From assembly GCA_938023035.1 (NCBI GenBank), contig CALIDI010000049.1, positions 1-64,000 on the forward strand: a stretch of DNA of 64,000 bases. The letters are read 5' to 3'. The position numbers and the translations under genes were made by a program. The notes beneath the pieces are model-generated. The model saw nothing but the letters and a program-made list of their open reading frames with translations. It was not told where the DNA came from and ran no database searches. This document shows positions 8,868 to 43,487 of this stretch, piece by piece; within the stretch, counting starts at the first letter, position 1; every line of letters begins with the position of its first letter. Origin of the DNA: an uncultured Leptolyngbyaceae cyanobacterium. Its GTDB lineage: Bacteria; Cyanobacteriota; Cyanobacteriia; Leptolyngbyales; Leptolyngbyaceae.

Positions 8868-11800
8868 TTAACCAGGAACTTCAGCTTTCACGGGCAATAG
8901 CAAAACGAATTCGGTTCCTTGCCCAAACACTGACTGCAACTGAATCGAGCCACCATGTTTTTCTTCCACAATTTGCCGGGCGATCGCCAGTCCCAAGCCT
9001 GTCCCCTTGCCAACCGCTTTCGTCGTAAACAGGTGGTCAAAAACCTGGGCTTTCACAGTCTCCGTCATCCCCGTGCCGTTATCAGCAATGCTGATTCTTA
9101 CCTGGTTAGGGGCACTCAGCTCTGTACAAATCGTAATCGTGGGAACATAGGTCGTTTCGGCATCAGCCCTGATTTTTTGCGGTAAAGCTTCTTCTAGGGC
9201 ATCAATCGCATTCGCCAGCAGGTTCATAAAGACCTGGTTTAGCTGCCCTGCAAAGCAATCGACCAGCGGCAAATCGCGATAATGCTTAGACACCACGATT
9301 TCTGGACGGCATTGTGAGGCTTTTAAGCGATGCTTTAGGATCAACAAGGTACTGTCAATGCCCTCGTGCAAATTAAACGGCACCTTATAGTCTTTATCGG
9401 CCCTGGAAAAGGTGCGCAGACTGGTACTGATGTCTCGAATCCGCTGCACACCCAACTGCATGGACTCCAGTAGCTTGGGTAAATCGGCTCGAATATAGTC
9501 CAGCTCAATCGCCTCAATTTCGGCTTGCACATTGTCACAAGGCTCAGGATAGGCTTGCTGGTAACAATCAATTAATCCCATCAGGTCATTAATATAGTCT
9601 CTAGCAGGGGTCAAATTGCCGGCAATGAAGCCAACGGGATTATTGATTTCATGGGCTACCCCCGCCACCAAGTTACCTAAGGCCGACATTTTTTCATTCT
9701 GCACCAGTTGCAGTTGGGTCTGTTGCAGATGCTCAAGGGCTGCTTGGGCCTGCTGATAGAGGCGGGCATTTTCCAAGGAGATGGCTGCCTGCGTACACAA
9801 GAAGTTGAGAATCTCGACGCGATCGCTGGTGAAGGCACCCGTGATTAAGTTGTTCTCTAGATACAAAATGCCGAGCAACTTAGCCTGGTACAGCAGCGGT
9901 GTACACAACAGGCTTTTGGGCTGCCGACTGAGAATGTAGGGATCGGCCATGAGGGCCGGATGATCAACAGCATTGATGACCACCGCCGGCTGAAGGCTAT
10001 GTTTGACAGTGTGAATCAAAGAAACAGGCAGATCGGGGTAATCGGTCAGGGGCAGAGATTGGAGCAACGCTGCCGGCTGGTCAACATGACTGATGGCCTC
10101 AATCACCAATTCAGCCTCTTTGACCAACAACAAGACACAGCGATCAGCTCCGGCATTCTCAGACACAACCTGAAGGAGTTTCGCGATCAGTTTATCCAAC
10201 TGAATCTCACTCGACAAAGCCTGGGAAGCTTTGATCACCGTGGCTAAATCAAAATCATCCGAGCAACTCGCACTGGAGGTGGATGATTTTCGGCTGGTAG
10301 AGGGCCGCGTCCGCGCGCCACTCAAGGGATGGTTCATTTGAGATTGCCCAAAGTGGCTAGACTCGCTGATGGCAGATTCACTAGCCAAGGCCGAGTTAAC
10401 TAAAGTGGGGTAGCGGCTTTCTAAATCCTTTACCTTCGCAGTCGCCCCCCACCGCACATAGCCGTAGTAGGCGTTGAGCAAATAGTCTTGAGCAACCCTG
10501 GGTTTGCCCCATTCCAGGAAGAACCGAGCCGCCAGTTCGTTAGCCAGAGCGGCTTCGTTGAGGTAGCCATGCTCGTTTGCAAGGGCGATCGCCTGATCAT
10601 AGGCGGCGATCGCCGCCACTTTATCGCCTAGCACCCGATAGCGCTCTGCTTCGACAAGCTGGAATTTGTGGGCGTAGTTCATGGGGGCGTGGCTGGCCCA
10701 CTCTGCCATAGCGGCCTGGTTCGTCGCGACTTTTTCCAGGGTAGCGGCCCACTCCGGCTGATTTGCCCCATCCGCACTTGATCGGCCTTGCGGGGTTAAC
10801 AGTGCTAGACAAACCAGCGAGTCATAAAAGTTATAAACCGATCCCAAGACGAACGCTGCGCCACTATCAACATAATCTGCACAAATCTTGGCGTAGTTCG
10901 TTGCTTGTTTGACCTCACCCAACAGGTAATAGACCATCAGGCGGCTGATCGCAAACATAAAAACCGTTGTGCGATCGTTCGCATTTACATAGTAATCCAG
11001 CAATGCGGCATCACTATAGTCTGGCTCATCCCAGCCAATCGGCGGCTGAGACTGGCCCATAAGCTGCAAAATCGCCCAACGAAAGACCTCATTTTTATGG
11101 AGGATAGCGGTCTGTTTCACCCCATCCATAATCTGGCTATAGTTGGCCATTTCCACTTCCAGTTCGGGCAGATTGCGGCTAGCCATGAGGGAATGGCAAC
11201 CATACTGAAAGGAAGAACGGGAAGCATACTCAAAATCCCCAATTGCCATGCCGCTTTGATAACTCTCCAGCAAGGGTTTAAGGGTCTGGTTGAGGTGCTC
11301 TTTACGATGGCGAATAAAGACATTAAAGGCAAAGATAGTCTTGGCCTCAAAGGCTCTAGCGTCAAACTTTTCCAGGAGTTGCAGAGCCAACTGGCCAAAT
11401 TGATAGCCGGTTTCAATATCACCGACAATGCCCGCCAATACCAGACCATACCAGGCATAGGAGGAGGCAGAAACCGCCGCATTGCCATATTCTACCAGCA
11501 GCTTAACCTGCTGTACGGCTAGCAACTGGGCGACGGCAGGGGCCGCATTATAGGCGCTGGTCATCGCACTGGACATCAGCGTTACGGCGGCTAAAATCCG
11601 CTGATCGATCAGCTCTGGCAAATTAGCTAGGGCCAGGGGCGATCGCGCTTCGCCCAATGCCGTTGTTTGCTTCTGTAGCTGTTGCTGCAACGCCGCCTCG
11701 TGGCGCTGCAAATCGGCAGGGGTAGGCTGGGCTGGCAACCCAAAACCCAACAGTTCCAAAATTTCGAGGGTGGTCTCAACCGCTTGTTGCATGGCATTTT

Positions 11801-14396
11801 GGGCTGCACAAGCCTGAATCTTAATTTCATAGACTTTGACCTGATCCAACACGGTTCTGGCCTGGTGCAAAACCACCTGAGCCAGTTGGGTCATTGTGTC
11901 AAAATCGCCACTTAAGTAGGCCACTTCTGTGGCCTCTTCAAACAGCGCCAGGGTCAGCTCATACTGGTTTTGCCAGCTATCGAGGGCCAATAATTTACGG
12001 CCAGTCGTACAATAATTGGCCGCCGCACTGTATGCTGTCGCATGCTTGGCCCTACGCGCTGCCAGTAGGTTGAGGCGGGCCAACTCTTCCCGCTCGGTCG
12101 CAGTGCAGATTAGCTCCAGCGACACATTGAGCTGATTCACCAGCTCAAAAATCCGGTCTTCTCTGCCCGATTGGCTGGTGTGCTGTAACAACCGCTGCCC
12201 AATCCGGTAATGGGTTAGGGCTCGCTGCTCAGGGTGAATCAGGGAATAGGCCGCCTGCTGCACCCGATCGTGGAGAAACTTATAGGTAACGGCAATGGAT
12301 TCTGTAGGGTAAGGGGGAGGGGCGATCGCTCGATTCAAATCTAAAACCAGGCCAGTAGCTTTACTGATGTCAGATTGAAAAAATTTATATACCTCATTTT
12401 GGGGCAGCACTAAGCCTTCCCGCAGCGATCGCCACAGGTCAGCCGCCGTCTCGGCCTCTGACTTACCATAGACAATCGCCAGAGTTGCTAAATCAAATTG
12501 ATTGCCGATACAAGCCGCTAATTGCAACACCATCTGGGTATCTGCCGGCAGTTTTTGCAACTGCAACGCCATAAACTCAACCACATCATCGGTTAGAGCT
12601 AGCGATCGCACCTGGGCGACATCACACTCCCAATAGTTACCGGCCCGATTAAAGATAATGTGACCGTCTTCGTGCAGCGCCTTAAGAAACTGGGTCAGAA
12701 AAAATGGGTTGCCTTGAGTTTTGCCCATCACCAGTTCGGTTAAGGGTGCCGCCAGATCCAGCGAGCAACTGAGGGTATCAGCAATCAGTTGGTTAACAAA
12801 CGCGATCGGCAGAGGAGCCAGAGTAATTGTATTAATCGGGGTAGCCGCTGCCGCAATCTCCTCTAAAGTCAGCAAGAGTGCATGGCCGGGTGTGACTTCG
12901 TTATCTCGATAGGCCCCAATAAACAGAAGATGACGCGTCTCCACTGCCCCCATTAGCTGCTGCATTAGCTTAAATGACGTGGGGTCAGCCCACTGGAGGT
13001 CATCAATAAAAATAACCAGAGGATGTTCGGGTGCTGCAAACACCTGTATAAAGCTGCACAGCAAGCGGTTAAAGCGATTTTGAGCCGCGCTACCGCTTAA
13101 ATCCGGCACTGGGGGTTGTGTGCCAATCATCTGCTCCAGTTCTGGAATCACCTCAACTAAAACCTGGCCATTTTTGCCTAACACCTGCAAAATCTTCTGC
13201 CGCCAGCCCTCTAGTTGGGCATCACTCTCACTCAAGAGCTGTGCCATCAAGTCTCGCAACACCTGCACAAAAGCAGAGAGGGGAATATCTCGCTGAAATT
13301 GGTCAAACTTGCCCCGAATAAAGTAACCCCGTTTCTTGACAATCGGTTTGTGGACTTCATTCACAACCGCGGTTTTACCAATGCCAGAAAAACCGGCTAC
13401 CAGTATCATCTCTGCCCGCCCTAGGCTGACCCGCTCAAAGGCATCAAGCAAGGCTGTTACCTCCGCTTGCCGACCATAAAGCTTTTCAGGAATAAGAAAC
13501 CGATCACACCGATCCTGCTGAGCTAATTCAAAGGGCTGAATCTGGCCCGTCGCTTGAACTTGCTCCCAACAAATCTGCAGATCATGCTTTAACCCCAGCG
13601 CACTTTGATAGCGATCTTCGGCATTTTTTGCCATCAGTTTAGCCACAATGGCAGAGACCACCCCTGGCACGAGGGGGTTGACTTGCTCAACGGGGGTCGC
13701 CATCCTAGCAAGGTGGGCATGCACCAATTCCATTGGGTCACTGGCTTGAAACGGTAACACACCCGTCAGCAATTCGTAAAAGGTCACTCCAAGAGAATAA
13801 AAATCGCTGCGATAATCAATCCCTCGGTTCATTCGCCCCGTTTGCTCAGGCGACAGGTAAGCCAGGGTACCCTCTAAGACGTTAGGGTTCTGAATTTCCT
13901 GGGTTTCTCTTGGCAGCAGCGAAGAAATCGAAAAGTCAATGAGCTTGACTTGTTTCGTTTCGGGATGAATCAAAATATTGGCAGGTTTAATGTCTTTGTG
14001 AATAATACAGTGTTGATAAAGCTGGTGCAGCACATCTGCCAATTGTAGTGCTATCAGCAAAAATGCGCTCAGACCAAGGGGGTGACCCTGGGCAAAACTT
14101 TTGAGCGAAATCCCCCCAAAGTCTTCCATCACCAGAACGTAGCCGTTACCACAGGCTTCCAGACTATAAAACTGAATGACTCCAGGTAAGTTTAGATGTT
14201 TGACGATGGCGTACTGGTTGCGAAACTGCATTAACTCGCCAAACGTGGGGGTTTCTTTACGCAACAGTTTCAGAATAACCGATTTTCGATCTGACACTCT
14301 TACTGCTCGATAGACTAGGGTTCTAGAGCCTGCATAAAGCGGTTCGAGGATCTGGTAACCTGCTAGTGAAATGCTTTCGGTTATTACAGTTGCCAT
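8868..14396 (-). CDS. Giant hybrid signalling protein: Ser/Thr kinase, AAA ATPase, GAF, histidine kinase (HstK type)
   Basis: An 1842-residue protein with four modules. Residues 12-270: Ser/Thr kinase (ILKLLRK lysine, HKDIKPANILIH loop, LIDFS in place of DFG). Residues about 305-560: predictor AAA ATPase with Walker A GFSGIGKT and Walker B-like VIFIDDLQWADP. Residues about 600-1330: long helical TPR-like region. Then a GAF domain (about 1400-1540) and a histidine kinase with H-box MSALGNLVAGVAHEINNP, N-box NQVFMNLLANAIDAL and G-box GKGTGLGLAI. This architecture is the HstK family known from Anabaena and other multicellular or complex bacteria. The stand-alone location gives no clue to the signal. 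A response regulator partner is not adjacent. Confidence 0.92.
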   Translation of the reverse strand: MATVITESISLAGYQILEPLYAGSRTLVYRAVRVSDRKSVILKLLRKETPTFGELMQFRNQYAIVKHLNLPGVIQFYSLEACGNGYVLVMEDFGGISLKSFAQGHPLGLSAFLLIALQLADVLHQLYQHCIIHKDIKPANILIHPETKQVKLIDFSISSLLPRETQEIQNPNVLEGTLAYLSPEQTGRMNRGIDYRSDFYSLGVTFYELLTGVLPFQASDPMELVHAHLARMATPVEQVNPLVPGVVSAIVAKLMAKNAEDRYQSALGLKHDLQICWEQVQATGQIQPFELAQQDRCDRFLIPEKLYGRQAEVTALLDAFERVSLGRAEMILVAGFSGIGKTAVVNEVHKPIVKKRGYFIRGKFDQFQRDIPLSAFVQVLRDLMAQLLSESDAQLEGWRQKILQVLGKNGQVLVEVIPELEQMIGTQPPVPDLSGSAAQNRFNRLLCSFIQVFAAPEHPLVIFIDDLQWADPTSFKLMQQLMGAVETRHLLFIGAYRDNEVTPGHALLLTLEEIAAAATPINTITLAPLPIAFVNQLIADTLSCSLDLAAPLTELVMGKTQGNPFFLTQFLKALHEDGHIIFNRAGNYWECDVAQVRSLALTDDVVEFMALQLQKLPADTQMVLQLAACIGNQFDLATLAIVYGKSEAETAADLWRSLREGLVLPQNEVYKFFQSDISKATGLVLDLNRAIAPPPYPTESIAVTYKFLHDRVQQAAYSLIHPEQRALTHYRIGQRLLQHTSQSGREDRIFELVNQLNVSLELICTATEREELARLNLLAARRAKHATAYSAAANYCTTGRKLLALDSWQNQYELTLALFEEATEVAYLSGDFDTMTQLAQVVLHQARTVLDQVKVYEIKIQACAAQNAMQQAVETTLEILELLGFGLPAQPTPADLQRHEAALQQQLQKQTTALGEARSPLALANLPELIDQRILAAVTLMSSAMTSAYNAAPAVAQLLAVQQVKLLVEYGNAAVSASSYAWYGLVLAGIVGDIETGYQFGQLALQLLEKFDARAFEAKTIFAFNVFIRHRKEHLNQTLKPLLESYQSGMAIGDFEYASRSSFQYGCHSLMASRNLPELEVEMANYSQIMDGVKQTAILHKNEVFRWAILQLMGQSQPPIGWDEPDYSDAALLDYYVNANDRTTVFMFAISRLMVYYLLGEVKQATNYAKICADYVDSGAAFVLGSVYNFYDSLVCLALLTPQGRSSADGANQPEWAATLEKVATNQAAMAEWASHAPMNYAHKFQLVEAERYRVLGDKVAAIAAYDQAIALANEHGYLNEAALANELAARFFLEWGKPRVAQDYLLNAYYGYVRWGATAKVKDLESRYPTLVNSALASESAISESSHFGQSQMNHPLSGARTRPSTSRKSSTSSASCSDDFDLATVIKASQALSSEIQLDKLIAKLLQVVSENAGADRCVLLLVKEAELVIEAISHVDQPAALLQSLPLTDYPDLPVSLIHTVKHSLQPAVVINAVDHPALMADPYILSRQPKSLLCTPLLYQAKLLGILYLENNLITGAFTSDRVEILNFLCTQAAISLENARLYQQAQAALEHLQQTQLQLVQNEKMSALGNLVAGVAHEINNPVGFIAGNLTPARDYINDLMGLIDCYQQAYPEPCDNVQAEIEAIELDYIRADLPKLLESMQLGVQRIRDISTSLRTFSRADKDYKVPFNLHEGIDSTLLILKHRLKASQCRPEIVVSKHYRDLPLVDCFAGQLNQVFMNLLANAIDALEEALPQKIRADAETTYVPTITICTELSAPNQVRISIADNGTGMTETVKAQVFDHLFTTKAVGKGTGLGLAIARQIVEEKHGGSIQLQSVFGQGTEFVLLLPVKAEVPG

Positions 14397-14847
14397 GCCA
14401 GGTGCGCTCTGTCAATTATTCTTTACGAGAATGTTTTTGGCTATTGCCCTTACCCAGAATGCCCATGATTGGGGACTAAGTCGCATTCAGTTCAGGTTAC
14501 TTTCTACTTTTCTCAAGGTTTTAGCAAGATCGCACCCATGGATAACAGAGACATATATGTCTTAATCCTATTTTGAAACCCCATGACCCGAAGTGTTGTA
14601 CATCTCAGTTTTGGAGTTAAGGGATAAAACTTTCAACCACTGCCTGGTCAGAATTTTTTAGCGTTATCAGTTGTCGGGTTACGTTGAGAGGGGTGTAGCG
14701 ATCGCAGCAGCGGTCATCGCTGGGGGCAAAGTACTTACCAGGAGTCTCAGCCAATGCTGTCAAACCAGAGCAAATGCACTCAATCAACCCAATTAGAGGC
14801 ACAATAGGGAACGACGTGCTTGAAAGGGTGGCCGCCAGTACAGCAAG

Positions 14848-15003
14848 GCGGAAATTTCTGGACTCGTCTCAGCCACCCGCATCTCCTTTTCTTGAATGCC
14901 CGCTAGGGCTATGTCCCTGCTCCTAGCGAGGCAGACGGGAAACTAGATCGAAGCCCTTCTCCCGCGTTGGGAGGGGGGTGGGGGTGAGAGCAAACAGACG
15001 AAT
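14848..15003 (-). repeat. Dispersed palindromic repeat family 1, copy 1
   Basis: The left part AAATTTCTGGACTCGTCTCAGCCACCCGCATCTCC and TTTTCTTGAATGCCCGCTAGGGC is nearly the reverse complement of 31800-31912. The right part contains the short palindrome CTTCTCCCGCGTTGGGAG followed by GGTGGGGGTGAGAG, the core seen in the other copies. Confidence 0.7.
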
Positions 15004-30432: not shown

Positions 30433-30575
30433 GTCACCTTCGCAGGCTCCCATCCCCCAGCCTTTCTCCCAGTTTGGGAGCAGGAGAGCCGAGCCACCTC
30501 AAAGTCTCTCTCCCAGTTTGGGAGAGGGATTAGAGCAATCCGGGCATACCAGAAAAGGGGGAGGGCAAAAGTGAC
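30433..30575 (+). repeat. Dispersed palindromic repeat family 1, copy 3 (best preserved)
   Basis: Starts GTCACCTTCGCAGGCTCCCA and ends GGGGGAGGGCAAAAGTGAC; these ends are imperfect inverted repeats. Inside are two CTCCCAGTTTGGGAG palindromes separated by AGCCGAGCCACCTCAAAGTC. About 143 bases. Confidence 0.78.
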
Positions 30576-31020
30576 ATGCCTCCTCTAGCTTGGATTGAAA
30601 ACCCTTCTCAAAACAGAAAATCAAGGATAACTTCCTACGATGGATCCATCAGCGTCACCCAATGTCATGACTTCACCCAATATTCCAGTATTTGCGAACA
30701 ACGACAGACCGAACTTAAGATTAGCCTTGAGGAAGATGTCTTTTCGGCACTAATAGCTTGAAGCAATTCATTTAAAGACAATGTTGGGGGTTGACGGGGC
30801 AGCCCCCACGTTCCCTTCTGATGATGAAATACACCGAACTACTTAGTGAAGTCTGGCATGATTCAAGACTGGGTAAGTTGACATTTTCAGCCAATTGAAT
30901 GACCGAGTAATGACTTGTTCAGGAAAAAATATTTAGGCAGGCATTTGTCCTATCAACCCTCTCTTAGCGGCGATATTCTCAATTAAAGTCGGCGTAGGTT
31001 AAAAGAATTCAAGAAAGCGT

Positions 31021-31122
31021 GTCACCTTTGCAGGCCCTCATCCCCTAGCCCCTTCTTCCAGTTTGAGAGAAGGGGAGCCGAGACCGCCAGGCATACCAGA
31101 AAAGGGGGAGGGCAAGAGTCAC
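31021..31122 (+). repeat. Dispersed palindromic repeat family 1, copy 4 (short form)
   Basis: Starts GTCACCTTTGCAGGCCCTCA, has a single core TTCTTCCAGTTTGAGAGAAG and ends GGGGGAGGGCAAGAGTCAC. It lacks the middle part of copy 3, about 40 bases shorter. It ends just before the psbP stop codon. Confidence 0.72.
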
Positions 31123-31134
31123 GTGCACCCGAAT

Positions 31135-31674: not shown

Positions 31675-32001
31675 TTCTAGAGGGTCTCCCATCTTAAACT
31701 CAATCCGCAGACATAAAAAGCGTTACTTCTCTTCATCTTCCCACCTCCTGAGACGCTTATCGCCATTAGCCCAAAATTTTGCCGGTTGTCCTAGTAGACG
31801 AAACCATCAGTCTGGTTACCCTCTCCCTGCCCCCTTGATGGGAGAAGAAACCTGGCCCTGACAGGCATTCAAGAAAGGGGGATGAGAGTGGCTGAGGCGA
31901 GTCCAGAAATTTTTGCCATCCAGTACCAGTAAAGTCCAGCCCATCAGACACCGGACAATACAGCCCAACTGAACCGATTGCCTTTGCACCTGGCGTTTTG
32001 A
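31675..32001. other. Divergent promoter region of psbP and ABC permease with a repeat
   Basis: About 330 bases. It holds a family 1 repeat copy (31800-31912) and must carry the promoters of psbP and the sugar permease. I cannot assign promoter boxes with confidence. Confidence 0.5.
31800..31912 (+). repeat. Dispersed palindromic repeat family 1, copy 5
   Basis: Contains TACCCTCTCCCTGCCCCCTT, GGCCCTGACAGGCATTCAAG, AAAGGGGGATGAGAGTGGCT and GAGGCGAGTCCAGAAATTTT. Reverse complement aligns well with 14848-14960. Confidence 0.7.
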
Positions 32002-34301: not shown

Positions 34302-35714
34302 ATGATAGCAGAAAAAGAGAGTAATCAATCTTCTTGGATGACGAATCACCGCCAACTTTCATTATTCAACCCGGAAGCAACCACACCACTATCAAAACTT
34401 CCCAATGCAAGTTTTCCCGACTCTGCAACACATTTGGCTGCTGTGATCCGTCAGATACCTGGAGAAACCCAGTCTGCTCGACCAGGATGGAAATGGCAAC
34501 GCATCGGAACGGGTATCTTTTTTACTGCTTTGGGTGGTGCCGCGATCGCATTTGGGGTAAATTCTGTTCTTTATCGCTGGCGTCATTTAGTCATTGATCA
34601 TGGGATTTTGAATGGCCGTACTGTCTCACTCCAAGCTCCGATTGATGGCAGCTTAACAACGTTTTATGCCCGTCCTGGTATTGCAGTTAGACAAGGACAA
34701 GCACTGGCCTTGATTCAAAACACACTACAAACGGATCAAAAAGAAACCCAAGCTGTTTTAGAGCTGGATGGGGAGGTTGCTGCCTACTCTGCGCAGCTGG
34801 TGGCCGCTACTCAGTCGCTGGCTCTATTGCAGCAACAACTTCAGGAATTAGAAGGCCAGAATCGGGCGGTTCAGTCTGTCGATACGACTCTGCAAACCAA
34901 GCAGGTGACTGAGCGTCAAGCAGCGGTTGAGGCCGCGATCGCAAAGACAAAAGCCGCAGATATGGAATTAAACCGCTATCGTAGTCTCGCTGCGGCAGGG
35001 GTCATCTCCCGCCAAAGGGTGGATCAAGCAGAACTGGCAGTGGCCGCTAGTAATGCCGAAGTGAAACAAGCGCAGGCAGCTCTGGCTGCGGCTCAAACGA
35101 GTCTAAAGGCTGCTAGCCAGGGCATTAGCAGCCAAACTCCCAAGATTAATCTGCTAGAGCAACAACGCCGCCTACAGCAAGCCATTCAGTCTCAAACAGC
35201 ACTGATCAGCACCTTGACAACTCAGCTTCAAAATCGCCGCCAACAACAGCAGCAAGCACGGGGTCGCCAGCAGGGCTTGAAGGAGCTGACTGTCAGCGCT
35301 CCCTTTTCAGGGGTGATTTACCGCACCTACCAGGAAACTGGAGAGCAGGTAAATCGAGGGCAGCCGCTTGTCAGCCTCCTAGATTGTCAGAGTGTGTGGG
35401 TCGAGGCAGTTGTTACGGCGGATGAAGCCGCAAATATTGACCTGCAGCAGCCCGTTTTGGTTCATCTGACGGGTTTTGCCCAGCCCTTAGAGGGACGAAT
35501 CGATCTCATCCAACCCTTGGGACAGAGCCAGATTGGCAATCTTACTCCTGACTCGTCGGTGCAAGCGATCGCCCCAGTGATTCCACCTTCCCTGAGTGGG
35601 CAAACCGTTAAGCGGGTCACGGTACGCGTGCCGCCGCCGCCCCAGCACACCAACCCCCAAGAGTTCTGTGGAGTGGGGCAAACCACGCGCCTGAGCTTTC
35701 GCCGAAAAGGATAG
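34302..35714 (+). CDS. HlyD/Alg44-like envelope adaptor of the polysaccharide locus
   Basis: A 470-residue protein: about 65 cytoplasmic residues, one membrane helix (GTGIFFTALGGAAIAFGVNSVLY, about residues 68-90), a biotinyl/lipoyl-like half (SLQAPIDGSLTTFYARPGIAVRQGQALALI), a long coiled coil (about 145-335, Gln/Ala-rich), then the second half (LTVSAPFSGVIYRTYQETGEQVNRGQPLVSL). This is the HlyD membrane-fusion layout, as in Alg44 or EmrA. GGAG precedes the ATG. The GT2 synthase gene begins 287 bases downstream, so it probably links polymer synthesis with passage through the periplasm. Confidence 0.82.
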   Translation: MIAEKESNQSSWMTNHRQLSLFNPEATTPLSKLPNASFPDSATHLAAVIRQIPGETQSARPGWKWQRIGTGIFFTALGGAAIAFGVNSVLYRWRHLVIDHGILNGRTVSLQAPIDGSLTTFYARPGIAVRQGQALALIQNTLQTDQKETQAVLELDGEVAAYSAQLVAATQSLALLQQQLQELEGQNRAVQSVDTTLQTKQVTERQAAVEAAIAKTKAADMELNRYRSLAAAGVISRQRVDQAELAVAASNAEVKQAQAALAAAQTSLKAASQGISSQTPKINLLEQQRRLQQAIQSQTALISTLTTQLQNRRQQQQQARGRQQGLKELTVSAPFSGVIYRTYQETGEQVNRGQPLVSLLDCQSVWVEAVVTADEAANIDLQQPVLVHLTGFAQPLEGRIDLIQPLGQSQIGNLTPDSSVQAIAPVIPPSLSGQTVKRVTVRVPPPPQHTNPQEFCGVGQTTRLSFRRKG

Positions 35715-36001
35715 CCCCACTGTCCAAATTGCAACCCCAACTAGGAAGACCACAAAACCTACATCAATCTGGGCGTCTCAAGTCAGAGATATAGCCGCAG
35801 CCAACTGATTGAGGAAAGGGTGCAGAGGTAGAACCCTCCAATAAACTCACCAATCTGGCTAACTGATTGCGGGCAAGGAGGTTCTGAAACGTTCCCACAG
35901 GCCAATCAACACAGTATCCACTCTTGATTAACCCATCCCAATTAGCCGGATTTTCTTCAAATATTCCTCAAAGTTGACCCATCCCCCTATCAAAACATCA
36001 T

Positions 36002-38200
36002 ATGGCTAGTACTGCGAAATCCCGTTTGTGTAAACTGAGCCATCTTCAGCCCAGCCTGAATTTCGGCTTACTGATTTTGCTGATGATAGCTGCAAGCATG
36101 GGACTGCTCTGGCTGCGTCAAGGCAACCTTGATAGCATTTACCTGTCAGAAATTTTTACGCTGGGTGCAATTGGCCTCTGGCGTTGGTCTTGGTTTGGGG
36201 TACAAACGCTGCGATCGCGACTTTATGAGCATGTTTTTTTTCCTCGGATGCGGCGCAGAGCAAACACCATCCCAATTGAGCAACTGCCACCTGTCTGCCT
36301 TTTGGTGCCCACCTATCAGGAAAAAGCCTGGATCAGTGAGCGCGTTTTTCGGGTGATTGCCCAGGAAGCCCAAACGCTGCCCCATCCCATCACACTGCTG
36401 GTGACTAGTGGCAGCGAGGCTGAAAATGCCGCCATTCGAGCTGTTTTAGAGGCAACCGATCCAGGTTTACAGCATATTCACTTGATTCAAATGGTGCAAA
36501 CTGGTGAAGGGAAGCGCAAAGCCATGGCAGACGGCCTGCGGGTCTTGGCTCAGCAACATTTGCCGGCTAATACCATCGTGGCTCTAATGGATGGTGACTC
36601 AGAACTAATCCCCGGAACCCTGCGCCGCTGTCTCCCATTTTTTTGTTTGTATCCCAATCTGGGAGCCTTAACGACAGATGAGCTACCAGAAGTTCACGGT
36701 TCTTTCTGGTTCTCAGAATGGTTTCACTTACGCATGGCGCAGCGGCATCATCATATGTGTGCCGTTGCCCCCAGCCATAAAGTTACCTGCCTAACGGGTC
36801 GTTTTTCCCTATTTCGGTCTGAGGCAACCTTTCACCCGGAGTTTATCAACCAGCTAGAAAATGACATGCTGGAGGATTGGTTATGGGGCAAGTTTAAGTT
36901 TCTCTCAGGGGATGACAAAAGTACCTGGTACTGGTTGTTAAAGCACCGCTACGATATGCTCTATATCCCCGATGTGATTGTTTATTCGATTGAGACGATT
37001 ACTGGCTCCCTCTGGCAACGTGCCTATCAAAATATGCGCCGCTGGTATGGCAACATGCTGCGTAACAGTGGTCGGGCGATCGCCCTTGGGCCTCAAAAAA
37101 CCGGCTGGTTTATCTGGTTTGTTCTAATCGACCAAAAAATCAGTATCTGGACTCCCCTACTCACTCCAGGATTCTTACTGCTCTGCCTCCTTCAGGGGCG
37201 CTGGCTCGCCACTGCCATCATCGGTTGCTGGCTGATGCTGACCCGGCCCCTTGCCTTGATGATTTATTTCATCCACTTTAAGCAGCGGGCTTCCCATCTC
37301 AAGCTCCTCCATTTTCCCCTACTACTCATCTCCCAATGGGGAGCTTGCCTGGTCAAAATCTGGACACAAACCAACCTGGCCCAGCAACGCTGGAGCAACC
37401 GGGGAAACCAAAAGATCTCAGCCGAGGGCAAAGGGGTGGTGCGTCTCATCAAGGTAGGAACCGCCCGGTTCCTTTATCTCTCTGGGTTGGTGGGGTTCGC
37501 GGTTGTTTTAAGCTCCCTATCGGGCAATATCCATCCGCTGAATGACGCGACCCAAGCCTGGTGGAGCCAGCAGATGAACCGCCAGCCGGAAACAATCGTT
37601 ACGATTGAGGCGATCAACTATGGAGTCATCCCGAATGATGATGTTGATGATGCGCTTGCCATCACACAACTCATTCGCAGCTTGCCCAGCCAGGGAAAGA
37701 TTCAGATAATACTACCCCCTGGCACACTAGAGTTGCGGCAGCCCATCGAAATCAACCGTAGCCATACCATTCTTCGGGGCGCAGGAATTGACCGCACCAT
37801 CTTGCAAGCCTACCTTGTACCAACATCAGAAGTGGCGCTGATCAAACTAACACCAGAGCCTGCATCAGCTAGGCTAGCTGGCTTTAGAGACCGTTTAGCC
37901 AGCCCCAACCCGAGCGTTCATCACGAGGCCTCGTCAATGTTGCAAGCCGTAGAGTTGTCTGGCTTCACGTTGCGTCAAAGTTCTCCCAGTTATCAACCTC
38001 AAGCCAGGGTCAATGGCATTTTCCTGCAACAAGCCGAGCAAATCACACTGAATCATCTGCGCTTTGAGCAGGGAATTCGCACCGCGATTGAGCAGCGATC
38101 AAGCCACCAGGTGACAGTTGAATACGTGGTAGATGAACAAAACCAGAACCCAGACTACTCGGTCATGCTGGAAACGCCTTCAGAAAACCCTGGGAGTTGA
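36002..38200 (+). CDS. GT2 polysaccharide synthase fused to pectate-lyase-like beta-helix
   Basis: A 732-residue protein. Two N-terminal membrane helices; a processive GT2 domain (about residues 95-350) with VPTYQEK, the DGDSE metal motif (about 198), TDE, LEDWLWGK and the QNMRRW product motif (about 343), as in Alg8, BcsA and hyaluronan synthases; then several membrane helices (about 375-510); finally an extracytoplasmic segment from about 535 (AINYGVIPNDDVDDALAIT, then ILRGAGIDRTILQAYL) with the cap and first coils of a right-handed beta-helix. The beta-helix part is only about 195 residues and may be incomplete. The following 257 bases contain open but shifted frames that might be its decayed end. 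The fusion is unusual; see findings. Confidence 0.85.
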   Translation: MASTAKSRLCKLSHLQPSLNFGLLILLMIAASMGLLWLRQGNLDSIYLSEIFTLGAIGLWRWSWFGVQTLRSRLYEHVFFPRMRRRANTIPIEQLPPVCLLVPTYQEKAWISERVFRVIAQEAQTLPHPITLLVTSGSEAENAAIRAVLEATDPGLQHIHLIQMVQTGEGKRKAMADGLRVLAQQHLPANTIVALMDGDSELIPGTLRRCLPFFCLYPNLGALTTDELPEVHGSFWFSEWFHLRMAQRHHHMCAVAPSHKVTCLTGRFSLFRSEATFHPEFINQLENDMLEDWLWGKFKFLSGDDKSTWYWLLKHRYDMLYIPDVIVYSIETITGSLWQRAYQNMRRWYGNMLRNSGRAIALGPQKTGWFIWFVLIDQKISIWTPLLTPGFLLLCLLQGRWLATAIIGCWLMLTRPLALMIYFIHFKQRASHLKLLHFPLLLISQWGACLVKIWTQTNLAQQRWSNRGNQKISAEGKGVVRLIKVGTARFLYLSGLVGFAVVLSSLSGNIHPLNDATQAWWSQQMNRQPETIVTIEAINYGVIPNDDVDDALAITQLIRSLPSQGKIQIILPPGTLELRQPIEINRSHTILRGAGIDRTILQAYLVPTSEVALIKLTPEPASARLAGFRDRLASPNPSVHHEASSMLQAVELSGFTLRQSSPSYQPQARVNGIFLQQAEQITLNHLRFEQGIRTAIEQRSSHQVTVEYVVDEQNQNPDYSVMLETPSENPGS

Positions 38201-38457
38201 GGCTGCCGACTATTTGCGATCTATCGATGGCAATCCTACTGCAAGCAGGCAGTCGATCCAGCGTCTGCCCCATTCAAACTTGTAATCAATGGATGCTGCT
38301 CTGGCGATCGCCGTGCCTTCAGTCGTTAGGCAAATTAGGTAACCAACTTCCAGAAGGCTTGAGGCTTTGTCCGCTTAGACCGCTTCCCAACGGACTGATT
38401 CAGGCCCTCACCTCTTGGCTCTATGGGAAAACATTTTACGCTCTTTGGGAGATACCT

Positions 38458-39354
38458 ATGACTTTTGGGTTTCGGCAACTTCTGCTGACTTTACTCACGA
38501 CGGCAGGTTTGGGGTTGCTGTGTCACAGCGACCAGCCCAGCGTTGCAACGGCTTTCCAGCCGTTGGGTTCTGTTTCGTCTAACCGTAATAGCGCCATGAG
38601 CCGACTTGCCCAGACGGGCAGTCTCCAACTTCTCTGGTCAAACCGGTTTCAATCGGCAAATTGGCAATCCCAGTGGCAGGTGCAGTCCCAGGGAAAGTGG
38701 GGCATGCAGAATCTCCGAGTCTTGTCTGAACCGCAGGGAAAGTATACCCAATTTTTACGCACCCTTTATCCAAAGGGATCGGCCAGTCCTGCTGTAACTC
38801 GGCAGCAGGGCACACCAGTTGGGGGTGGACAGTTCTATGCCAGCCTTGGCATTAGCCCCCGTGATGCGTTGCGCCTCAGCTATGCGGTACGCTTTTCAAG
38901 CAATTTTGACTTTGTCAAAGGGGGAAAATTGCCGGGTCTGTTTGGGGGAACGGCAACGAGTGGGGGCGCAGTCCCGGATGGAACCAATGGAGTCTCGACT
39001 CGCTACATGTGGCGAGCCAACGGAGTTGGCGAGGTCTATGCCTATCTTCCCGGTGCTAGCGATTACGGGGTTTCTCTTGGTCGGGGCAACTGGCGGTTTG
39101 TTCCGGGCCAGTGGCACCAGATTACGCAGGAGGTCATACTCAATCAGCCGAACCAAAAGAATGGAAGGGTTCGAGTCTGGTTCGATGGTAAGTTAGTGCT
39201 CGACGAACGCGAGCTGCTATTCAGAACCAGCGATCGCCTAAAGCTCGAAGGTATCTTTTTCTCCACATTCTTTGGTGGCAATGATACATCCTGGGCTAGT
39301 CGTCGTAATGTGACTGTTGATTTTGCCGACTTTAAGGTTTGGGCGATTCAATAA
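38458..39354 (+). CDS. Polysaccharide lyase family 14-like secreted protein
   Basis: The ATG at 38458, behind a GGGAGA ribosome site, gives 298 residues; a longer in-frame opening from 38197 lacks a plausible start. Signal peptide: residues 5-25 (QLLLTLLTTAGLGLLCHSD). The lyase core contains LSYAVRFSSNFDFVKGGKLPG (in part), GTNGVSTRYMWRANGVGEVY, WRFVPGQWHQITQEVILNQP, RVRVWFDGKLVLDER and FFSTFFGGNDTSWA, which are the PL14 signatures (alginate or glucuronan lyases). It follows the GT2 gene and probably trims or releases the exported polymer. Confidence 0.83.
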   Translation: MTFGFRQLLLTLLTTAGLGLLCHSDQPSVATAFQPLGSVSSNRNSAMSRLAQTGSLQLLWSNRFQSANWQSQWQVQSQGKWGMQNLRVLSEPQGKYTQFLRTLYPKGSASPAVTRQQGTPVGGGQFYASLGISPRDALRLSYAVRFSSNFDFVKGGKLPGLFGGTATSGGAVPDGTNGVSTRYMWRANGVGEVYAYLPGASDYGVSLGRGNWRFVPGQWHQITQEVILNQPNQKNGRVRVWFDGKLVLDERELLFRTSDRLKLEGIFFSTFFGGNDTSWASRRNVTVDFADFKVWAIQ

Positions 39355-39361
39355 ACTACCC

Positions 39362-39901
39362 CTACGCGAGGCGCTTTTCTAGATATTGCCCAATCATTTT
39401 TTGTTCGCCTGCATAGGAAATAATGGTCTGGCGGGTACGGTAGCGGCTACCAATCAGTTTCAGCTCTTCTTCAAAGACAGAGCCATTATACTCTGTGCGG
39501 AGGCAAAGGGTTTGAGGATGGGTGAAGCTAAAGCCAGCCGTAACCGGTTTGGGTGTCGCAAAACCGCGATCGCGATAGAGTACAGTACCGAGAGCACCAA
39601 AGAGGGTAACCCCTTGCGATTGGCTCCGCTTAGAAACGGAGTCTTCACTGACCCACTCAACCTCAGCCCCACAGGTCAATACTTGGTCTGCCGCTAACTG
39701 GTGTAGCTGGGCAAGATGAATTAATTCTGAACTGCCCTGGGGCAAAAAGCGGATCGACAAATGACTCACAACCTCTTTCGTGGTGCCAGCGGGCAGGGTG
39801 TAATAGCGCCGCTCAGACAACCATTGACCGGCTGATTGTTGAAAAAACTCACTAATTAGTAAAGTAGCCGCCTCTGGGGCCAGTTGGTTTTGAACAGTCA
39901 C
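39362..39901 (-). CDS. CpcS/CpeS-family phycobiliprotein lyase
   Basis: About 179 residues from the GTG at 39901, which has AAGGA ten bases upstream; a TTG at 39910 is possible. The family fold is a lipocalin barrel that attaches phycocyanobilin to phycobiliprotein cysteines. Seen features are FFQQSAGQWLSERRYYTL, the inner strand TLFGALGTVLYRDRGFA, LCLRTEYNGSVFEEELKLIG and YRTRQTIISYAGEQKMIGQY. The last piece is closest to the CpcU/CpcV type in my memory; the subtype is not certain. It is convergent with the lyase gene, seven bases away. Confidence 0.75.
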   Translation of the reverse strand: MTVQNQLAPEAATLLISEFFQQSAGQWLSERRYYTLPAGTTKEVVSHLSIRFLPQGSSELIHLAQLHQLAADQVLTCGAEVEWVSEDSVSKRSQSQGVTLFGALGTVLYRDRGFATPKPVTAGFSFTHPQTLCLRTEYNGSVFEEELKLIGSRYRTRQTIISYAGEQKMIGQYLEKRLA

Positions 39902-40153
39902 AGAATTCAAATCCTTACGAAGATGAGAGAGTAGGAAAGCAGCAGCCCTAGTGGTCGCTCAAAATGGGCTGTAACTTTTCTTAATACTAGCAGAGCCGTC
40001 AAGGGTGGGGGAGGTGGATTGGCTCAAGCAGATTTTGCTTCGATTACGCTCGCCAACTTCAACAAAAGGGCTGTGGGAGAGATCCTAAATCAATTCGTTA
40101 AGGGCCGCAATGGGGCGGCTATAGTTGAGTAGCAGCCTGGGAGAAGACAGATT

Positions 40154-42791: not shown

Positions 42792-43487
42792 AAGTTCTAC
42801 CCCTGTTCAGGCTTCACCTGATCTCAATCGAATTAAAAGTGATCGAATTAAAATGTTGGGTGAGATTGAACAGTCGCATTCGCAACACTAACGGGAACCC
42901 ACTCATTTGTGTAAGACCCTGGAATGTGTAAGACCCTGGAAGTCATCCTCGCACAGGTGGCATCCGACGGGTGCATATCACTTATGCCCCACCCTTTGCT
43001 GGTATGCCCGGAAAGCTTTAATCCCTCTCCCAACTTAAGAGAGAGACTTTGAGATGGCTCGGCTCTCCTGCTCCCAGTTTGGGAGCAGCGGCTGGGGGAT
43101 GAGGGCCCACAAAGGTAACATACTCCCGTATCCGACCCTCTATGGCGGTAGCTTGCCATCTGAAACACTCCTGTTCTCGTCCCATCAAAGCAGCGAAAGA
43201 TAAAGCCGAACTTCTAAAGGCGTTACAAGAAACAAAAGCAAACCTAGATGGCGATCGCAAACGTTCACGACACGCTCAAAATGTGCAAACAAACGCTGAA
43301 ACTTCGTCAGTTGAATTCGCTTGCGACTTTGGTAAAAGTTAGCGCCTTGATTAGCCTCCCCCTAACCTCGCCAACTGCCCTAACAGCACATCTGGGAAAA
43401 GGATCTGTCATTCGCTAGGATTTGACGGCATACTGAAAACAGGCAAACCTGCAATTGGCAGATCTGCAACAAAGGTAACTCGCGACT
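42792..43487. other. 700-base intergenic region with one repeat
   Basis: Contains family 1 copy at 42977-43119. A 66-codon plus frame at 43142 has no family features. The promoter of the DUF3172 gene should be at the right end. Confidence 0.5.
42977..43119 (-). repeat. Dispersed palindromic repeat family 1, copy 7
   Basis: Inverted relative to 30433-30575 and highly similar over the full length: CCTTTGCTGGTATGCCCGG, CCCAACTTAAGAGAGAGACT, TTGAGATGGCTCGGCTCTCC, TGCTCCCAGTTTGGGAGCAG, GGGGGATGAGGGCCCACAAA. Confidence 0.78.

What the first reader, a model, noticed from the sequence alone, without database searches (positions are those of the whole stretch)
34302..39354. Alginate-like polysaccharide locus with a synthase-beta-helix fusion
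Three genes in one direction code an HlyD/Alg44-like adaptor, a GT2 synthase with QxxRW-type motif fused to an extracytoplasmic beta-helix, and a PL14-type lyase. In Pseudomonas the synthase (Alg8), adaptor (Alg44), epimerase (AlgG, beta-helix) and lyase are separate genes. Here the beta-helix is attached to the synthase and would sit at the exit side. That suggests a cyanobacterial polyuronate (or related) secretion system. No c-di-GMP PilZ domain was recognised in the adaptor.
Basis: partly seen in the sequence, partly recalled or inferred. Interest (0 to 1): 0.65.

Follow-up and report, generated by a model that had tools for sequence, protein, structure and literature searches.

The report
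Cyanobacterial alginate-type polymer synthesis and export
Three neighbouring cyanobacterial genes encode a relative of the bacterial alginate polymerase with an extra outward-facing domain, a tunnel adaptor and an alginate-lyase-family enzyme, which suggests that scattered cyanobacteria make a seaweed-like acidic polysaccharide with machinery that had been thought missing from them.

Summary
34302-39354 carries an HlyD adaptor, a GT2 synthase fused to a C-terminal beta-helix, and a PL14 lyase. The interpretation (alginate-like polyuronate secretion) is supported and extended. The GT2 belongs to the Alg8 family: its profile scores genuine alginate-operon Alg8s at 342-377 bits, and the same genome's other synthase-like GT2s under 6. 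The module recurs in 31 cyanobacterial loci. In 386 cyanobacterial genomes the synthase occurs in 6 and PL14 in 8, including all six. In four related operons a GDP-mannose 6-dehydrogenase (AlgD) sits between adaptor and synthase. In seven, the adaptor carries a degenerate EAL domain (catalytic Glu replaced by Lys), which would replace the PilZ domain of Alg44; the window's adaptor groups with these but lacks it. The beta-helix is modelled confidently, lies on the periplasmic side and resembles alginate epimerases, but shows no conserved catalytic residues, so it is more likely a guide or docking domain. AlgE and AlgF are absent; export is probably through TolC. The window's genome lacks AlgD and has only a UDP-glucose dehydrogenase, so its polymer may be glucuronan rather than mannuronan. 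No chemistry is known. New variant of a known kind.

The parts
34302..35714 (+). HlyD/Alg44-like periplasmic adaptor (co-polymerase), 470 aa; short cytoplasmic N-terminus, one TM (about 68-90), long coiled-coil hairpin; lacks the EAL domain found on seven relatives
   Evidence: Pfam HlyD_3 2.6e-16; hydropathy and no EAL remnant upstream; 35-44% identity to adaptors of five other loci; hhalign to genuine Alg44 over the C-terminal 118 columns, prob 83%, E 8.7e-6
36002..38200 (+). Alg8-family GT2 polymerase (residues 1-506) fused to a periplasmic short right-handed beta-helix (residues about 533-711)
   Evidence: Pfam, Alg8 comparison, tree, models, charge bias of loops
37559..38197 (+). C-terminal beta-helix domain as modelled alone (residues 520-732)
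   Evidence: AlphaFold2 pLDDT 85.1, pTM 0.81; Foldseek and VIA-align matches to the pectin-lyase-like beta-helix superfamily, including AlgE4, AlgE6 and 8ja4/8jaz alginate epimerase/lyase
38458..39354 (+). PL14 family polysaccharide lyase with signal-peptide-like N-terminus, 298 aa (annotated ORF opens at TTG 38197)
   Evidence: PF21294 6e-61; 5gmt alginate lyase 4.8e-27; invariant GGKLPG, S-x-R and Y-A-Y residues in six loci

Best explanation
A synthase-dependent polyuronate secretion machine of the Alg8/Alg44 type. The Alg8-family GT2 polymerises an activated uronic acid in the cytoplasm and threads the chain through its own membrane channel (inferred from family). The fused beta-helix hangs on the periplasmic side, directly at the exit, and most likely holds or steers the emerging chain toward the adaptor rather than editing it. 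The HlyD adaptor bridges to a TolC-type outer-membrane channel encoded elsewhere in the genome, in place of AlgK/AlgE. The secreted PL14 lyase takes the place of AlgL: it clears or trims polymer. In related loci the adaptor's cytoplasmic side carries a degenerate EAL domain, predicted to be a c-di-GMP receptor doing what PilZ does in Alg44; the window's adaptor lacks it. Where AlgD is in the operon the donor is predicted to be GDP-mannuronate; in the window's genome only a UDP-glucose dehydrogenase was found, so UDP-glucuronate is the likelier donor. Shown here: gene content, family assignments, fold, co-occurrence, motif loss. Inferred: polymer identity, export route, c-di-GMP binding, role of the beta-helix.
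For: Alg8 family: a profile of the window GT2 and five relatives matches the seven Alg8s from AlgF-bearing alginate operons at 342-377 bits, while the own-genome GT2s sampled score below 6 bits; 54 invariant columns shared with genuine Alg8, including GKR, DGD, LTGR, GDDK and RW-GN. Uronate link: PL14 in 25 of 31 loci beside the synthase, in three more elsewhere in the genome or as a remnant; 6 of 6 synthase genomes among the 8 PL14 genomes of 386, hypergeometric 6e-12, not corrected for kinship. AlgD between adaptor and synthase in L010, L011, L027, L034; best PDB match of the two tested (L011, L034) is P. aeruginosa AlgD at 395-410 bits against 231-242 for UDP-glucose dehydrogenase; these four form one clade (87/93). 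Adaptor as Alg44 counterpart: EAL-HlyD in seven cyanobacterial loci, catalytic EGVE Glu replaced by Lys in 7 of 7; PilZ-HlyD next to the related alphaproteobacterial synthase L044. TolC route: outer-membrane efflux genes beside planctomycete relatives, one full-length OEP (two repeats) in own genome, AlgE absent from six module genomes but found in both alginate-operon controls. Beta-helix.
Against: No polymer, expression or mutant data. AlgD is absent from the window's genome and from most module-bearing genomes, so the donor is not fixed. TolC is unlinked in cyanobacteria. Gaps of 287 and 257 bp separate the three window genes, so a single transcript is not shown. The beta-helix superfamily is structurally promiscuous, so resemblance to epimerases is not specific.
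Confidence: 0.78

Rival explanations
1. The same machine, but the window's organism makes mannuronan/alginate proper, with GDP-mannuronate supplied by a dehydrogenase missed in the draft genome or by a non-orthologous enzyme.
For: The Alg8 family uses GDP-mannuronate where tested (established knowledge); four relatives keep AlgD in the operon; the genome is 95.9% complete in 62 contigs.
Against: AlgD is missing from the window genome and most module genomes searched, too many for assembly gaps; the AlgD loci form one nested clade, so the window belongs to an AlgD-less lineage.
Confidence: 0.25
2. The fused beta-helix is an active C5-epimerase or lyase, that is, AlgG joined to Alg8, editing the chain as it emerges.
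For: Fold matches include AlgE4, AlgE6 and an alginate epimerase/lyase over 164-165 residues, Z 13.7-14.8; position at the exit side.
Against: Over 25 sequences the invariant residues are all in the N-terminal cap and first coils (D27, D30, D31, L38, L52, P53, G55, R67, G74 of the domain); later coils show no conserved Tyr, His, Asp, Lys or Arg, and L032, L033, L035, L036 lack most of the later coils. The epimerase modules matched are far longer (targets of 374-480 residues).
Confidence: 0.1
3. A neutral beta-glucan (cellulose-like) or mannan synthase, with the PL14 gene serving a different, neighbouring function.
For: Cyanobacterial cellulose uses the same layout of synthase, HlyD and TolC plus a hydrolase (XcsABC; PMC12430437).
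Against: Own-genome synthase-like GT2s score under 6 bits with the family profile while Alg8s score over 340; no PilZ on the synthase; the linked degrading enzyme is of a uronate lyase family, not an endoglucanase; AlgD in four operons.
Confidence: 0.1
4. A decaying, horizontally acquired locus in the window's strain (adaptor without its EAL domain, no AlgD) that no longer makes polymer.
For: Patchy distribution, 6 of 386 genomes; no EAL on the window adaptor although its nearest relative in the tree, L037, has it; a lone PL14 and a PL14 remnant in other genomes.
Against: All three reading frames are intact and every shared Alg8 invariant residue and the PL14 invariant residues are kept; a whole clade of 17 loci also lacks EAL yet keeps the module.
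Confidence: 0.07

Closest known systems
Pseudomonas/Azotobacter alginate synthase-dependent system (Alg8, Alg44, AlgK, AlgE, AlgG, AlgX, AlgL, AlgD)
   Same: Alg8-family polymerase (32-35% identity over 420-470 residues, shared invariant motifs); membrane-fusion-type co-polymerase; dedicated uronate lyase; AlgD in some operons
   Different: C-terminal beta-helix on the synthase; adaptor with long HlyD-type hairpin and EAL or nothing instead of PilZ; PL14 instead of PL5 AlgL; no AlgE or AlgF found; TolC-type export inferred
Cyanobacterial cellulose system XcsA-XcsB(HlyD)-TolC with XcsC endoglucanase
   Same: Layout of GT2 synthase, HlyD adaptor, unlinked TolC and a linked degrading enzyme
   Different: Synthase belongs to the Alg8, not the BcsA/XcsA group; no PilZ on the synthase; degrading enzyme is of a polyuronate lyase family
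LapD/FimX-type degenerate EAL c-di-GMP receptors
   Same: EAL domain with lost catalytic base and non-consensus loop 6, on a membrane protein that acts in the periplasm (in relatives, not in the window)
   Different: Fused directly to an HlyD export adaptor of a polysaccharide synthase; no GGDEF or HAMP domain
AlgE4/AlgE6 and other pectin-lyase-like beta-helix enzymes
   Same: Right-handed beta-helix fold with the NDGxDD N-terminal cap of PF12708
   Different: Much shorter, no conserved catalytic residues in the later coils, tethered to the polymerase

Membership tests
Alg8 polymerase family | Sequence relationship to Alg8 of genuine alginate operons, clearly above other GT2 synthases | tested here: met
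   342-377 bits for seven Alg8s against below 6 bits for own-genome GT2s; shared invariant motifs; in the tree Alg8s and the cyanobacterial group are neighbouring well-supported groups, not one clade
Canonical (Pseudomonas-type) alginate system | PilZ domain on the Alg44 adaptor | tested here: not met
   No PilZ in the window adaptor; EAL in seven relatives
Canonical (Pseudomonas-type) alginate system | AlgE outer-membrane porin (PF13372) | tested here: not met
   0 of 6 module genomes; positive in both alginate-operon control genomes
Canonical (Pseudomonas-type) alginate system | AlgF acetylation factor (PF11182) | tested here: not met
   0 of 6 module genomes; the model rings in 21 of 398 Pseudomonadota genomes
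Canonical (Pseudomonas-type) alginate system | GDP-mannose 6-dehydrogenase AlgD | tested here: not met
   Absent from the window genome; present in the operon of four relatives
Canonical (Pseudomonas-type) alginate system | Product is poly-mannuronate/guluronate | not testable with these tools
   Needs polymer analysis
Polysaccharide lyase family 14 | PL14 domain over cut-off and conserved active-site region | tested here: met
   PF21294 206 bits against cut-off 27; 5gmt alginate lyase 4.8e-27 with GGKLPG, SxR and YAY aligned, invariant in six loci. The catalytic role of these residues is recalled, not checked in a paper
Cyanobacterial cellulose synthase (BcsA/XcsA) | BcsA-group GT2 with C-terminal PilZ | tested here: not met
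   No PilZ; own-genome synthase-like GT2s unrelated at profile level
Mannuronan C5-epimerase (AlgG/AlgE) for the C-terminal domain | Right-handed beta-helix fold | tested here: met
Mannuronan C5-epimerase (AlgG/AlgE) for the C-terminal domain | Conserved catalytic residues in the central coils | tested here: inconclusive
   No invariant Tyr/His/Asp/Lys/Arg after the first coils, but the epimerase catalytic residues were not superposed
Degenerate EAL c-di-GMP receptor (related adaptors only) | EAL domain lacking the catalytic base of the EGVE motif | tested here: met
   Lys in place of Glu in 7 of 7; rule for inactive EAL in PMC12900916
Degenerate EAL c-di-GMP receptor (related adaptors only) | Binds c-di-GMP | not testable with these tools
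   Needs a binding assay

The most novel reading that the evidence does not exclude
Scattered cyanobacteria make an alginate-type polyuronate (mannuronan where AlgD is in the operon, glucuronan elsewhere) with an Alg8-family synthase that carries its own periplasmic chain-guiding beta-helix, switched by c-di-GMP through a degenerate EAL domain fused to an HlyD adaptor instead of PilZ-Alg44, exported through TolC and trimmed by a PL14 lyase.
Probability: 0.45. Interest if true: 0.75.

Novelty: new variant of a known kind. Interest (0 to 1): 0.62.

Why it matters
A phylum-wide survey found no Alg44 architecture and no AlgF or PL5 lyase in cyanobacteria and concluded that their synthases must work with other partners (PMC4594306). 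This module supplies candidates for those partners: an EAL- or unadorned HlyD adaptor, a PL14 lyase and, in some, AlgD. It predicts which cyanobacteria make alginate-like polymer, suggests a further kind of c-di-GMP input for exopolysaccharide synthases besides PilZ and degenerate GGDEF, and offers a photosynthetic source of polyuronate with defined genes to test.

Tried and rejected
Single-sequence scan of genome contigs gave no relatives; the alignment-based scan did. Single-sequence PDB search of the synthase found nothing useful. An EAL remnant upstream of the window adaptor: none. A fused AlgG epimerase: not favoured because no catalytic residues are conserved and several orthologues lack the later coils. 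Cellulose synthase: rejected by profile scores. Search for a paper on PL14 active-site residues (AkAly30) found none in the library; the paper on Alg8/Alg44 membrane topology is not held. The C-terminus was therefore placed by loop charge and the five-helix statement for Alg8 in PMC8461298. No paper describing this three-gene module was found in nine searches; that library is partial. Alginate has been reported chemically from a Synechocystis isolate, with no biosynthesis genes of that isolate found in the passages read (PMC10629183).

Full report
OBSERVATION. Pfam assigns the first to the HlyD adaptors, the second to Glyco_tranf_2_3 with a sub-threshold match of its C-terminus to PF12708 (pectate-lyase/epimerase-like beta-helix), and the third to PL14 at 6e-61. 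The PL14 ORF opens at a TTG that overlaps the synthase stop, but the ATG at 38458 is followed by a signal-peptide-like stretch and is about where relatives begin. The 'QxxRW' motif is not strict here: the segment is QNMRRW, and what is conserved is RW(Y/S)GN, as in Alg8.

A CONSERVED MODULE. The synthase occurs once in the window's genome and in 6 of 386 cyanobacterial genomes spread over several families. In all six, the adaptor and the PL14 gene are neighbours. PL14 itself is found in only 8 of the same 386 genomes, and these include all six; the chance of that is 6e-12 if genomes were independent. A second scan brought 28 cyanobacterial matches, three of them already seen from the other collection; counted with the window, L010 and L011 they make 31 distinct loci. 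PL14 lies beside the synthase in 25 of 31; in two more it is on another contig, in one it is a 37-residue remnant on the same contig, and in three the contig ends.

IT IS AN ALG8-TYPE SYNTHASE. Alginate operons were located through their AlgF gene in 398 Pseudomonadota genomes, fetched, and searched with the profile of the window synthase and its five relatives. Seven Alg8 proteins matched at 342-377 bits; the own-genome GT2s of five other loci (regions, among them three of 820-856 residues of cellulose-synthase-like size) scored under 6 bits. The window protein and Alg8 are 32-35% identical and share 54 invariant columns in an eleven-sequence alignment, among them GKR, DGD, LTGR, GDDK, PD, RW-GN and DQ. 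Alg8 ends just after the last membrane helix; the beta-helix is appended exactly there.

URONATE PRECURSOR. In L010, L011, L027 and L034 a nucleotide-sugar dehydrogenase lies between adaptor and synthase. For the two tested, the best solved relative is GDP-mannose 6-dehydrogenase of P. aeruginosa (1mfz, 395-410 bits, nearly full length), well above UDP-glucose dehydrogenases (231-242 bits). These four synthases form one clade (87/93). The window's genome and nearly all others searched have only more distant, UDP-glucose-dehydrogenase-like proteins (one genome, G386, has an unlinked intermediate one at 333 bits). So a polyuronate is well supported for the family, mannuronate for one clade, and glucuronate is the default guess for the window's strain.

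THE ADAPTOR AND c-di-GMP. In seven cyanobacterial loci the adaptor has an N-terminal EAL domain (Pfam 2e-48 and 3e-54 for the two scanned). In 7 of 7 the catalytic glutamate of the EGVE motif is lysine, and loop 6 departs from consensus; by the published rule such domains are predicted phosphodiesterase-inactive (PMC12900916), the state in which EAL domains can act as c-di-GMP receptors, as in LapD (PMC3032553). The deepest cyanobacterial branch (L026) and the sister of the window (L037, 98/96) both have EAL-HlyD, so the window probably lost it, though the tree is midpoint-rooted and cannot by itself tell gain from loss. No trace remains upstream. In the alphaproteobacterial relative L044 the gene after the synthase is a PilZ-HlyD protein. 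The C-terminal part of the cyanobacterial adaptors aligns with genuine Alg44 (hhalign probability 83%, E 8.7e-6).

THE BETA-HELIX. Modelled alone it is a confident right-handed helix (pLDDT 85.1, pTM 0.81); the full synthase model agrees. Structural matches are the pectin-lyase-like superfamily, among them AlgE4, AlgE6 and an alginate epimerase/lyase over about 164 residues at Z 13.7-14.8, in company with many other sugar enzymes and phage tailspikes. Loop charges (positive at 66-96, 333-383, 425-436, 458-484; neutral or negative at 37-47 and 507-532) place it in the periplasm. In 25 sequences only the N-terminal cap and first coils are invariant, and four orthologues lack most of the later coils. 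L044 carries a related, longer beta-helix on its synthase (hhalign E 2e-7). I therefore read it as a chain-guiding or docking domain, not an epimerase.

EXPORT. AlgE is missing from six module genomes while both control genomes have it. Planctomycete relatives L042 and L045 have a TolC/NodT-type outer-membrane efflux gene beside adaptor and synthase, and L041 and L042 also carry a PL14-like gene. The window's genome has one OEP protein with both repeats and one weak partial match. A TolC route is the simplest reading and matches the proposed cyanobacterial cellulose system (PMC12430437).

NOVELTY. The 2015 phylum-wide survey found no PilZ-HlyD protein, AlgF or PL5 lyase in cyanobacteria and inferred different partners (PMC4594306). 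I found no description of this module in the papers searched; the library is incomplete. It is a variant of a known kind, not a new kind. The main gaps are chemistry, donor and c-di-GMP binding.

Noticed in passing
window 30466-30564 and 42987-43085; 14838-14940 and 31824-31926; 30540-30579 and 31087-31126: Dispersed repeats, 76-90% alike, flanking the locus on both sides; they create spurious ORFs sharing the peptide LGAGEPSHLKVSL.
   Followed up: no
window 39362-39910 (-): CpeS-like phycobilin lyase gene (PF09367 2e-39) convergent with the PL14 gene; unrelated to the module.
   Followed up: no
L044:7673-10390 and 10294-12024: Alphaproteobacterial Alg8-like synthase fused to a longer beta-helix (905 aa in all), followed by a PilZ-HlyD gene: the fusion is not confined to cyanobacteria.
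   Followed up: partly
L045:405-1838: Free-standing beta-helix protein (Beta_helix, NosD, PF12708) about 8 kb upstream of a planctomycete synthase locus with TolC-type and HlyD genes.
   Followed up: no
L147:8208-9104; L148:4931-7948: Lone PL14 orthologue without synthase in one cyanobacterium, and a 1005-aa protein with a C-terminal PL14 domain in another.
   Followed up: partly
G401:C53:9615-9704 (contig of L034): PL14 remnant of 37 residues downstream of an AlgD-bearing synthase: lyase apparently lost or broken there.
   Followed up: no
L026:6954-9800: EAL-HlyD adaptor of 948 residues, much longer than the others, on the deepest cyanobacterial branch.
   Followed up: no
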